A stretch of DNA of 64,000 bases from a bacterium (lineage in GTDB: Bacteria; Electryoneota; Electryoneia; Electryoneales; Electryoneaceae). Positions 42,572-60,793 of this stretch are shown piece by piece (position 1 is the first letter of the stretch; the number at the start of each line of letters is the position of its first letter). The translations under genes were made by a program, and so were the position numbers. The stretch spans positions 434,001 to 498,000 of the forward strand of contig JAHLLH010000003.1 of assembly GCA_020444265.1 (NCBI GenBank). The letters are read 5' to 3'. The notes below the pieces were generated by a model, which was not told the DNA's origin, made no database searches, and saw only the letters and a list, made by a program, of their open reading frames with translations.

Positions 42572-43933
42572 ATGTCCGACTTTGTCTCATCCATCATGGA
42601 ACAGGTCAAAGCGAAGAACCCAGCACAGCCCGAGTTCCATCAGGCCGTGATGGAAGTAGTCGAGTCTTTGGAAGTGGTCATCGATCGCCATCCGGAGTAC
42701 CGCAACGCCAAGATTCTCGAACGCATTATTGAACCGGAGCGCGTGATCATGTTCCGCGTACCCTGGCTCAACGATCAGGGTGAGGTTCAGGTCAACCGTG
42801 GTTTCCGTATCGAGATGAACAGCGCTCTCGGTCCCTACAAGGGCGGCCTTCGTTTCCACCCCTCCGTCAACCTCGGCATTCTCAAGTTCCTCGCCTTCGA
42901 ACAGGTCTTCAAGAACAGCCTCACCACGCTCCCGATGGGCGGCGGCAAGGGCGGTTCGGACTTTGATCCGAAGGGCAAGAGTGACAACGAAGTGATGAAG
43001 TTCTGCCAGTCCTTCATGACGGAACTCTGCCGTCACATCGGTCCGGACACGGACGTTCCAGCTGGTGACATCGGTGTCGGCGGTCGTGAGATCGGCTTCA
43101 TGTTCGGCCAGTACAAGCGTGTTCGCAACGAGTTCACCGGTGTGTTGACCGGCAAAGGTCTCAATTGGGGTGGTTCCCTGATTCGTCCGGAAGCCACCGG
43201 TTATGGCGCAGTCTACTTCGCCCAGGAAATGCTCGCGACCCGCAATGAGACGCTCGAAGGCAAGACTTGTCTCGTCTCCGGTTCCGGCAACGTGGCGCAG
43301 TACACGGTCGAGAAGCTATTGGATCTCGGCGCCAAGTCTGTTACCCTGTCCGATTCATCCGGCTACATCTATGATCCGGATGGCATCGACCGGAACAAGC
43401 TCGCTTGGGTCATGGAATTGAAGAACGTCCGTCGTGGACGTATCTCCGAGTACGCGGAGCAGTTCAAGAACGCAACTTATTATCCGCTGGATGCCACCAT
43501 GGGTTACAACCCGCTGTGGGATCACAAAGCTGATTGCGCGTTCCCGTCCGCAACCCAGAACGAGATCAACCAGCAGGATGCGAAGAACCTCGTTGGCAAA
43601 GGTGTTTACGTTGTCTCCGAAGGAGCCAACATGCCGACCGTACCGGAAGGCGTGGAAGTTTTCCTCGAGAAGGGCATTCTGTACGGTCCCGGTAAGGCTG
43701 CCAACGCTGGTGGCGTGGCCGTATCCGGTCTCGAAATGTCGCAGAACAGCCTTCGTCTCGGTTGGACCCGTGAAGAGGTCGACAACCGTCTGCAGGGCAT
43801 CATGAAGAGTATCCACCAGGCTGCGTTTGAAGCGGCTGAGCGGTTCGGTACCCCTGGCAATTATGTCAATGGTGCGAACATCGCCGGCTTCATCAAGGTC
43901 GCGGATACCATGATGGACCAGGGGATTGTCTAA
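42572..43933 (+). CDS. gdhA: Glutamate dehydrogenase, hexameric GdhA type
   Basis: A 453-residue enzyme, the length of the NADP-dependent enterobacterial GdhA type. It interconverts glutamate with 2-oxoglutarate and ammonia. Visible signatures are [14 protein letters not shown] (substrate-binding Lys), [17 protein letters not shown] (catalytic Lys), [15 protein letters not shown], and the dinucleotide fold [16 protein letters not shown]. The biosynthetic NADP role is inferred from length and GdhA-like motifs; coenzyme specificity is not proven. GGGGGAG precedes the ATG. A 450-base leader with repeated palindromes lies upstream. A PPDK_N-domain gene follows on the same strand, an arrangement repeated at the second GDH locus. 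Confidence 0.94.
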
Positions 43934-43961
43934 CCGTTTCGGGTAGATCGATCAACATACT

Positions 43962-43991
43962 GCGCGGAACGGTCCACGGATCGTTCCGCGC
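43962..43991 (+). terminator. Hairpin after gdhA
   Basis: A perfect ten-base stem GCGCGGAACG/CGTTCCGCGC around a ten-base loop lies 28 bases after the stop. It is followed by GGTTCGTTCC, not a T run, so it may only partly separate gdhA from the PPDK_N gene 35 bases further on. Confidence 0.5.
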
Positions 43992-44026
43992 GGTTCGTTC
44001 CAAACACCCTTTTACACTGAGCACCG

Positions 44027-59396: not shown

Positions 59397-59462
59397 ACTG
59401 TTACGAAGGTACAATCCAATTCGACTAGCGGAAAGGTACGACAGACAGGGAAGAAACAGAAA

Positions 59463-59485
59463 GGGCGCTCCCGCTGGGAGCGCCC
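59463..59485 (-). terminator. Terminator after the second GDH gene
   Basis: On the minus strand a perfect ten-base stem GGGCGCTCCC/GGGAGCGCCC with a three-base loop is followed by TTTCTGTTTC. It begins 21 bases after the GDH stop and implies that the downstream PPDK_N gene has its own promoter. Confidence 0.82.
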
Positions 59486-59506
59486 AAAGACAGCATCATC
59501 GCTAGA

Positions 59507-60793
59507 TCAGCACCACCCACGATCCTTACACGCCTGTGCGACGCGGTTGATGGAGATGGCGTAGGCGGCGTCGCGCATGTAGAGCTTCTTCTTGCGGGAG
59601 AGTTCGCTGACGGCTTTGAAGGCAGTGGTCATCTTCTCGTCGAGCTTGGTGAGCACCTCTTCACGGGTCCAGAAGTAGTTCATGTTGCACTGCACCTGCT
59701 CGAAGTAGCTACAGGTCACACCGCCGGCGTTGGCGAGGAAGTCCGGCACGACGAAAATGCCGCGACGTTCAAGCTCGACGTCCGCTTCCGGCGTGGTCGG
59801 GCCGTTGGCACCTTCCGCCACGATCTTGACCTTGTCGCTGATTTTCTTGGATGTCTCACCCGTCACCTGATTTTCCAGCGCGGCGGGGATGAGGATGTCG
59901 ACATCCTGCTCGATCCAGGCGCCGCCCTCGAGGACCTCGTAGCCCAGTTCCTTTGCCTTCGCTTTGTCGATGCCGCCGAAACGGTCGGTCACCGCGAGGA
60001 GCTCGTCGATGTTGACGCCGACCGTCTTGCGGAAGGTGTAGGACGTCTGGTCGCCTTGGTCCCAACTGGAGACGGCGACAACCGTGCCACCGAGCTCGTT
60101 GTAGAGGCGGATGGCGTACTGCGCCACGTTGCCGAAGCCCTGGAAGCTTGCGGTGGTGGTGGCGGGATCGATATTCTTTTCTTTGAGCGCTTCGCGGACG
60201 GTGTAGATCACACCATAGCCCGTCGCTTCGGTACGGCCAAGGCTACCGCCCATGCCAACCGGCTTGCCGGTGATGAAACCAGGGGCCTTGTAGCCGCTGA
60301 TCTGCTCGTACTCGTCCAGCATCCACAGCATGTGTTGACTGTTGGTCATCACGTCCGGTGCGGGAACATCGTTGAGCGGGCCGACGTTTTTTGCCATCTG
60401 ACGGACCCAGCCACGGCAGATCTGCTCCTGCTCGCGCATGGAGAGGTTGTGTGGGTCGCAGATAACACCGCCCTTACCGCCGCCGAGGGGGATGTCCACC
60501 ACAGCACACTTCCAGGTCATCCAGGTCGCGAGCGCCTTGACCGTATCCACCGTTTCCTGCGGGTGGAAGCGGATGCCGCCCTTGCTGGGACCGCGTGCAT
60601 CATTGTGCTGGACACGGAAACCCTGGAATACCTTCACGGTACCATCGTCCATGCGGACGGGAATACTGAAATGGAACTGACGCAACGGGTTGCGCAACAG
60701 TTCTCTTGTGCCTTCATCGAGGCCGATTTGCTCAGCGACCTTGTCAAACTGGGCTTGGGCCATCTCGAACGGATTGAACGCCTTGCCAGCCAT
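59507..60793 (-). CDS. Glutamate dehydrogenase, GudB/RocG-like type
   Basis: A second glutamate dehydrogenase of about 428 residues, close in length to catabolic NAD-type GudB/RocG enzymes and clearly different from the 453-residue gdhA at 42572. Motifs: QHNDARGPSKGGIRFHP, the catalytic Lys region DIPLGGGKGGVICDP, DVPAPDVMTN, coenzyme fold FQGFGNVAQYAIRLYNELG, and LANAGGVTCSYFEQVQ. Coenzyme preference is inferred from similarity only. ATG at 60793 follows AGGAG by six bases; TTG at 60796 is less likely. Having both types allows separate assimilation and breakdown of glutamate. Confidence 0.94.
   Translation of the reverse strand: MAGKAFNPFEMAQAQFDKVAEQIGLDEGTRELLRNPLRQFHFSIPVRMDDGTVKVFQGFRVQHNDARGPSKGGIRFHPQETVDTVKALATWMTWKCAVVDIPLGGGKGGVICDPHNLSMREQEQICRGWVRQMAKNVGPLNDVPAPDVMTNSQHMLWMLDEYEQISGYKAPGFITGKPVGMGGSLGRTEATGYGVIYTVREALKEKNIDPATTTASFQGFGNVAQYAIRLYNELGGTVVAVSSWDQGDQTSYTFRKTVGVNIDELLAVTDRFGGIDKAKAKELGYEVLEGGAWIEQDVDILIPAALENQVTGETSKKISDKVKIVAEGANGPTTPEADVELERRGIFVVPDFLANAGGVTCSYFEQVQCNMNYFWTREEVLTKLDEKMTTAFKAVSELSRKKKLYMRDAAYAISINRVAQACKDRGWC

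What the first reader, a model, noticed from the sequence alone, without database searches (positions are those of the whole stretch)
42572..60793. Two unrelated-type GDH genes each paired with a PPDK_N-only protein, plus a kinase, an NtrC-type activator and a sigma-54 target
Seen: gdhA (42572-43933) is followed by a receiver-PPDK_N protein, a soluble histidine kinase, an NtrC-type regulator, a sigma-54 promoter and a small Cys-motif protein. A second GDH (59507-60793) is followed on its own strand by a GAF-PPDK_N-nucleotidyltransferase protein. Known: NtrC-type regulators and nucleotidyltransferases (GlnD, GlnE) control nitrogen metabolism, and PPDK_N domains bind ATP. Inference: this is a carbon/nitrogen signalling circuit in which an ATP-grasp module senses or modifies a partner according to energy and glutamate state. 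I know no described system of this composition.
Basis: partly seen in the sequence, partly recalled or inferred. Interest (0 to 1): 0.85.

Follow-up and report, generated by a model that had tools for sequence, protein, structure and literature searches.

The report
Glutamate dehydrogenases paired with dikinase-like regulators
Across at least nine named bacterial phyla, genes for glutamate dehydrogenase, the enzyme joining carbon and nitrogen metabolism, sit beside an undescribed protein family that looks like a signal-controlled, ATP-driven phosphate-transfer machine with no substrate domain of its own, suggesting a new way to regulate this enzyme.

Summary
The proposed recurrence test, GDH linkage, came out positive. 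Of 92 homologues of the receiver-PPDK_N protein with enough upstream sequence, 73 have an E. coli-GdhA-type GDH less than 700 bp upstream. These span at least nine named phyla (Ignavibacteriota, Calditrichota, Zixiibacteriota, Acidobacteriota and others). The GAF-PPDK_N-nucleotidyltransferase protein is independently linked to a second GDH type. No other neighbour gene family recurs in more than 11 of 117 loci.

The C-terminal ~185 residues (no Pfam family) are predicted to fold like the swivelling phosphohistidine domain of PPDK and rifampin phosphotransferase. They carry one invariant His, and the ATP-grasp residues are invariant too. No acceptor-substrate domain is present, so the acceptor must be elsewhere; GDH is the best candidate, unproven.

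The kinase, NtrC-type activator, perfect sigma-54 site and Cys-motif protein form a separate conserved module: in relatives it heads a NADH/Fe-S/glutamate-synthase-like operon, apart from the GDH-PPDK_N pair. No literature was found. The GDH pairing is solid; the phosphohistidine chemistry is probable; GDH as the target is inference.

The parts
42572..43933 (+). GDH1: NADP-type glutamate dehydrogenase (E. coli GdhA subfamily)
   Evidence: Pfam ELFV_dehydrog and its N domain; NF006929 757 bits over cut-off 536; 67-84% identical GDH upstream of most P0001 homologues
44027..47008 (+). P0001 (PPDKa): REC(degenerate)-REC-PPDK_N ATP-grasp-phosphohistidine-like domain
   Evidence: AF2 mean pLDDT 84.4; VIA-align to PEP synthase 2ols, model 430..991 on 9..467, Z 26.7
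44549..45010 (+). P0001 residues about 175-328: receiver domain with the canonical set E182, D183, D252, S286, K305
   Evidence: E182, D252, K305 65/65; D183 63/65; S286 63/65 plus T 2/65; fold match to receiver domains Z about 13-14
45338..46453 (+). P0001 PPDK_N ATP-grasp domain with invariant K442, R533, E780, Q799, R801
   Evidence: PPDKb and PPDKs keep these too
46442..47005 (+). P0001 residues 806-993: C-terminal domain without a Pfam family, predicted swivelling phosphohistidine domain; invariant H922 in S-x-G-x-H-F-F
   Evidence: AF2 of the domain alone pLDDT 90.9; VIA-align top seven rows are the His domains of PPDK and rifampin phosphotransferase, Z 7.2-5.9; His invariant in 95 PPDKa, 29 PPDKb, 11 PPDKs
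47048..48775 (+). Soluble GAF histidine kinase (first gene of a separate module)
48776..50149 (+). NtrC-type sigma-54 activator (separate module)
50364..50379 (+). Perfect sigma-54 -24/-12 promoter element
   Evidence: 0 mismatches to TGGCACNNNNNTTGCW
50438..50770 (+). 110-aa protein ending in the CxxC-x5-C...HCEEY motif; likely sigma-54 target
   Evidence: same motif in the small gene after HK-NtrC in relatives
56128..59349 (-). P0002 (PPDKb): GAF-PPDK_N-phosphohistidine-like domain (H831)-nucleotidyltransferase (GS...SDVD)
59507..60796 (-). GDH2: archaeal-type glutamate dehydrogenase, upstream of P0002 on the same strand
   Evidence: GDH2 within 6.5 kb of 20 of 27 PPDKb copies
59463..59485 (-). 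Terminator-like hairpin between GDH2 and P0002
   Evidence: 10-bp stem, 9 G-C pairs, T-rich tail; consensus match only

Best explanation
P0001 and P0002 belong to one family of 'dikinase-type' regulators that is an inherited partner of glutamate dehydrogenase. An input module (two receiver domains in P0001, a GAF domain in P0002, none in the short form) sits in front of an intact PPDK_N ATP-grasp domain and a divergent swivelling phosphohistidine domain. By analogy with PPDK, PEP synthase and rifampin phosphotransferase, the ATP-grasp would phosphorylate the invariant His (H922 in P0001, H831 in P0002) from ATP. Those enzymes then pass the phosphate to a substrate held in a third domain; this family has none. 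The likely acceptor is therefore in trans, most probably the neighbouring GDH, whose activity would be set by energy state and by the input signal. In P0001 the receiver domain could instead take or tune the phosphate. P0002 adds a nucleotidyltransferase as a possible second modification. Shown: the gene pairing, its breadth, invariant catalytic residues and domain order. Predicted: the phosphohistidine fold. Inferred: autophosphorylation and GDH as target. The kinase/NtrC/sigma-54/Cys-protein set is a separate module.
For: Pairing: a scan with P0001 alone gave 80 loci. Over those plus genomes of the window's phylum, 73 of 92 PPDKa copies have GDH1 within 700 bp upstream and 80 of 92 within 2.6 kb; in the Bdellovibrionales locus GDH is divergent, an independent arrangement. 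PPDKs/PPDKb go with another GDH type (10 of 13 and 20 of 27). Clustering 1341 neighbour ORFs finds only PPDK and GDH as widespread families; the next is in 11 loci. Where the unit is duplicated, GDH and PPDKa paralogues match 28 of 28 times. Co-presence in the window's phylum: GDH1 in 10 of 11 genomes with PPDKa, 7 of 28 without, Fisher p 0.0003. Chemistry: K442, R533, E780, Q799, R801 and H922 invariant in three subfamilies; Lys22 and Arg117 of rifampin phosphotransferase, the corresponding ATP-grasp residues by motif, are needed there (PMC4844700). The isolated tail's seven best VIA rows are all PPDK/RPH phosphohistidine domains. The fractional position of the His in the matched range agrees: RPH H825 at 0.59 of 764-867, H922 at 0.60 of the model range (arithmetic).
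Against: The phosphohistidine assignment rests on predicted structure at middling Z (7.2-5.9; next unrelated row 5.5). Foldseek gives nothing under E 0.007 for the tail, and profile-profile comparison with canonical PF00391 domains of PPDK is negative. The usual GGxTSHA motif is absent. No physical or biochemical link between GDH and these proteins has been tested. Ten of 68 named loci with enough upstream sequence lack a GDH within 700 bp upstream, and several genomes keep GDH1 without PPDKa. In the window GDH2 and P0002 are separated by a terminator-like hairpin.
Confidence: 0.5

Rival explanations
1. Non-catalytic energy sensor: the PPDK_N domain binds ATP/AMP and the protein is an allosteric subunit of GDH, with no phosphate transfer.
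For: Same genetic linkage. A related GAF-PPDK_N subfamily (PPDKc) lacks the His domain, and two members have also lost the Q/R residues, yet it sits beside a glutamate-synthase-like operon in three genomes.
Against: In the three GDH-linked subfamilies the ATP-grasp residues and the His are invariant over about 135 sequences, more than a sensor would need.
Confidence: 0.2
2. Cis phosphorelay: H922~P passes its phosphate to D252 of the receiver domain in the same protein (or receives it from there), so the receiver is the output and GDH is only co-expressed.
For: The receiver set E182, D183, D252, S286/T, K305 is kept in P0001 homologues; His-to-Asp transfer onto receivers is standard two-component chemistry (own knowledge).
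Against: PPDKs and PPDKb have the ATP-grasp and His domain but no receiver, and are linked to GDH as well.
Confidence: 0.13
3. Small-molecule enzyme: the proteins phosphorylate a metabolite of the glutamate/2-oxoglutarate node, and GDH feeds or drains that metabolite.
For: Relatives (PPDK, PEP synthase, rifampin phosphotransferase) act on small molecules; neighbours are glutamate enzymes.
Against: No third, substrate-binding domain is present; canonical mobile-domain proteins (PPDK-, PEP synthase- and PtsI-sized) exist elsewhere in the genome. Regulatory input domains suggest control rather than bulk flux.
Confidence: 0.12
4. Operon hitch-hiking: the genes are co-expressed or co-inherited with GDH without functional contact.
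For: Gene pairs can persist for expression reasons; P0001 and GDH1 are sometimes apart.
Against: Three protein subfamilies linked to different GDH types, a divergent arrangement in one phylum, and no other shared neighbour.
Confidence: 0.05

Closest known systems
Pyruvate phosphate dikinase / PEP synthase (PF01326 + PF00391 + PF02896)
   Same: ATP-grasp with the same catalytic residues, followed by a domain that aligns structurally to the swivelling phosphohistidine domain (2ols, 1dik; 5jvn etc.)
   Different: No PEP/pyruvate barrel, no canonical GGxTSHA motif, REC or GAF input domains, GDH linkage
Rifampin phosphotransferase (RPH)
   Same: ATP-grasp plus C-terminal phosphohistidine domain; best single fold match of the ATP-grasp (5hv1, Z 26.9)
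   Different: RPH has an antibiotic-binding domain between the two; here the two are adjacent and no acceptor domain is present
GlnD/GlnE nucleotidyltransferase control of nitrogen assimilation
   Same: P0002 carries a nucleotidyltransferase with the GS...DxD motif and is linked to a nitrogen enzyme
   Different: Only the small NTP_transf_2/MntA-type core is matched; no GlnD/GlnE family hit; target unknown
Known bacterial GDH regulators (GarA/OdhI, PTS-Ntr; own knowledge)
   Same: Post-translational control of the glutamate/2-oxoglutarate node
   Different: FHA or PTS proteins, no homology known to the family here

Membership tests
PPDK / PEP synthase | PPDK_N ATP-grasp with catalytic Lys/Arg/Glu/Gln/Arg | tested here: met
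   PF01326 over cut-off; K442, R533, E780, Q799, R801 invariant
PPDK / PEP synthase | PEP-utilizers mobile phosphohistidine domain (PF00391) by sequence | tested here: not met
   no Pfam family on residues 804-993; HHalign against 27 canonical domains probability 0.2%
PPDK / PEP synthase | Phosphohistidine domain by fold | tested here: inconclusive
   top seven VIA rows are these domains, Z 7.2-5.9, next unrelated 5.5; below Z 8
PPDK / PEP synthase | C-terminal PEP/pyruvate-binding barrel | tested here: not met
   P0001 ends after the His-like domain; no PF02896 hit in either protein
Rifampin phosphotransferase | Antibiotic-binding domain between ATP-grasp and His domain | tested here: not met
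   ATP-grasp ends near residue 809 and the tail begins at once; RPH models far below cut-off
Two-component receiver domain (P0001 REC2) | Acidic pair, phospho-acceptor Asp, Ser/Thr, Lys | tested here: met
   E182/D183, D252, S286, K305 conserved; fold Z about 13-14
GlnD/GlnE | Full-length GlnD or GlnE family match | tested here: not met
   only generic NTP_transf_2/Polbeta and sub-cut-off MntA hits
NtrBC nitrogen regulation (HK + NtrC of the window) | Equivalog-level match to NtrB/NtrC | tested here: not met
   ntrC TIGR01818 408 bits under cut-off 558.6; best is AtoC, also under cut-off
GDH-associated dikinase-type family (proposed here) | ATP-dependent phosphorylation of the conserved His and effect on GDH | not testable with these tools
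   needs biochemistry

The most novel reading that the evidence does not exclude
A previously undescribed, ancient regulatory system in which glutamate dehydrogenase is controlled by a dedicated ATP-driven phosphohistidine carrier: signal-gated (REC or GAF) dikinase-type proteins that have given up their own substrate domain and pass phosphate to, or otherwise modify, the partner enzyme, in parallel versions for different GDH types.
Probability: 0.4. Interest if true: 0.88.

Novelty: new variant of a known kind. Interest (0 to 1): 0.76.

Why it matters
GDH is the switch between carbon and nitrogen metabolism, and how most bacteria control it post-translationally is little known. A family linked to it in at least nine named phyla, with the parts of a phosphotransfer machine and no acceptor domain, gives a concrete testable candidate. 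It would also show the PPDK/PEP-synthase catalytic core reused for protein regulation, and a phosphohistidine domain too divergent for present sequence models.

Tried and rejected
Ordinary PPDK or PEP synthase: rejected, no PEP/pyruvate barrel, and canonical mobile-domain proteins of PPDK, PEP synthase and PtsI size lie elsewhere in the genome. Histidine kinase and NtrC as part of the GDH-PPDK_N system: rejected as a general feature. The 175-aa ORF 50823-51350 as a gene: it lies antisense to egtD and has no family. Defence system: no PADLOC hit for P0001, only the generic nucleotidyltransferase for P0002. Sequence proof of the phosphohistidine domain by HHalign: negative. Metallophosphoesterase beside PPDKb in 11 loci as the counter-enzyme: suggestive, but no homologue was found in the window's own genome (the search had no positive control). 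GDH residues that separate linked from unlinked GDH1 (E187, G196, E42 among others): seen, but confounded by phylogeny, and two of the added sequences (L260, L267) were read in a wrong frame, so the list is unreliable. GAF-PPDK_N 'PPDKc' next to glutamate-synthase-like operons: real in three genomes, degenerate catalytic residues in some. Literature: nine searches, no description. One genome search, one fold search and one paper search were left unused.

Full report
OBSERVATION. GDH1 (42572-43933) and P0001 (44027-47008) are 93 bp apart on the same strand. GDH2 (60796-59507, -) and P0002 (59349-56128, -) are 157 bp apart, with a terminator-like hairpin between them. Between the two pairs lie a histidine kinase and an NtrC-type activator, a perfect sigma-54 site with a 110-aa Cys-motif ORF behind it, the ergothioneine genes egtB and egtD, and a glycine betaine/choline-type ABC transporter.

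RECURRENCE. A scan of 84,980 species genomes with P0001 returned 182 relatives, of which the best 80 were kept. GDH1-type genes, 67-84% identical to the window's, lie directly upstream in most. Counting only copies with at least 1.7 kb of upstream DNA, and adding loci taken from genomes of the window's own phylum, 73 of 92 have GDH1 within 700 bp and 80 of 92 within 2.6 kb. In the named loci alone it is 58 of 68. The phyla, by record title, include Ignavibacteriota, Calditrichota, Zixiibacteriota, Acidobacteriota, Krumholzibacteriota, Latescibacterota, KSB1, Eiseniibacteriota, Gemmatimonadota and Bdellovibrionota; MAG labels can be wrong, and in the tree the Gemmatimonadota row groups with Eisenbacteria. 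In the Bdellovibrionales locus the GDH is divergent rather than co-directional. In 33 of 92 copies an archaeal-type GDH follows P0001 as a third gene (family).

A SECOND PAIRING. P0002-type proteins (PPDKb), and a short form of about 590 aa consisting of the ATP-grasp and tail only (PPDKs), occur together and downstream of GDH2-type genes: GDH2 lies within 6.5 kb of 20 of 27 PPDKb and 10 of 13 PPDKs copies. In two Zixiibacteriota genomes and one genome of the window's phylum both units are neighbours, as in the window (L124, L149, L166). Five of the window's six closest relatives have PPDKs directly before PPDKb, and the sixth shows none there; no PPDKs gene was found in the window's own genome.

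CONTROLS. All 1341 ORFs of the gathered loci and the window were clustered. Only the PPDK and GDH families are widespread (117 and 83 loci); the next clusters are in 11 loci, one of them a metallophosphoesterase beside PPDKb. In eight loci with a duplicated GDH-PPDKa unit, GDH and PPDKa paralogues match each other across loci in 28 of 28 comparisons; these loci are related, so this shows that the pair was duplicated and kept as a unit, not 28 independent events. In 39 genomes of the window's phylum, GDH1 is in 10 of 11 with PPDKa and 7 of 28 without (Fisher p 0.0003).

ANATOMY. Between residue 18 and its end P0001 is conserved at about 50-55% across phyla. It has a degenerate receiver, a second receiver with the full canonical set, a helical linker with invariant H361, the PPDK_N ATP-grasp, and a tail without any Pfam family. 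Across 95 PPDKa, 29 PPDKb and 11 PPDKs sequences, K442, R533, E780, Q799, R801 and H922 (P0001 numbering) are invariant. AlphaFold2 gives pLDDT 84.4 for the whole and 90.9 for the tail alone. In the whole model PEP synthase 2ols aligns over 430..991 to 9..467 (Z 26.7), that is, the ATP-grasp and the following His domain in the same order. The tail alone gives Z 7.2-5.9 to the phosphohistidine domains of PPDK and rifampin phosphotransferase as the first seven rows; residues 767-865 are the swivel domain of the latter (PMC4844700). These Z values are middling, Foldseek alone shows no significant match, and sequence profiles do not connect. The identification is therefore probable rather than proven. 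H922 stands at the N-terminus of a helix after a strand and a Gly-containing loop, the place of the catalytic His in PPDK (own knowledge).

MECHANISM. In PPDK, PEP synthase and rifampin phosphotransferase the ATP-grasp phosphorylates a His on a swivelling domain, which carries the phosphate to a substrate domain; Lys22 and Arg117 of the latter are needed (PMC4844700). The family here keeps the first half and lacks the substrate domain, so the acceptor should be in trans. The only constant genomic partner is GDH. The best reading is control of GDH by this carrier, gated by the receiver or GAF input. Rivals are ATP sensing without transfer, cis transfer to the receiver, a small-molecule substrate, or co-expression only.

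THE KINASE/NtrC MODULE. In relatives, HK-NtrC-Cys protein heads an operon with NuoE-like, NuoF-GltD fusion, Fe-S and glutamate-synthase-domain proteins (L194, L244, L247, L249-L252; L248 is cut by the sequence end). No homologue of the last gene was found in the window's genome (no positive control), so there the regulators seem to stand without that operon, next to the GDH-PPDKa pair. In three genomes this operon carries a GAF-PPDK_N protein (PPDKc) without the His domain. So the theme 'PPDK_N protein beside a glutamate enzyme' recurs a further time, which is the only link found between the two modules.

LITERATURE. Nine searches of the held library found no description of the family, its tail domain or its link to GDH. 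Most subscription papers are not covered.

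Noticed in passing
window 47048-50770; L194, L244, L247-L252: HK, NtrC-type activator and a Cys-motif small protein form a conserved head of a NuoE / NuoF-GltD fusion / Fe-S / glutamate-synthase-domain operon in the phylum, which looks like an uncharacterised, possibly electron-bifurcating, redox complex under sigma-54 control.
   Followed up: partly
L244 13590-15842, L253 2378-4531, L246 3-2123: GAF-PPDK_N proteins without the His domain (PPDKc), degenerate at the Q/R positions in two of them, sit beside the glutamate-synthase-like operon.
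   Followed up: partly
L149 95-958 and ten other loci: A calcineurin-like phosphoesterase lies beside PPDKb on the opposite strand; it could be the opposing enzyme. No homologue found in the window's genome.
   Followed up: partly
window 50438-50770; L205-L213: Small proteins with one or two C-x2-C-x(4-8)-C...CE-Y/F motifs; the window's member has no Pfam or NCBIfam family.
   Followed up: partly
window 47048-48100 and 58900-59349: The histidine kinase and P0002 share a GAF-like domain subtype (around 'ER.KEL.CL ... P.GW.Y'), also found in other kinases of the phylum; its ligand is unknown.
   Followed up: no
window 45041-45259 (P0001 residues 339-411): Weak match to DUF5752 (E 0.0004, below the curated cut-off) with invariant H361 and a conserved HFSNWL motif between receiver and ATP-grasp.
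   Followed up: no
window 37034-42119: PilT-like ATPase followed by pilus/secretin-type genes (secretin match at 40896-42119) directly upstream of GDH1.
   Followed up: no
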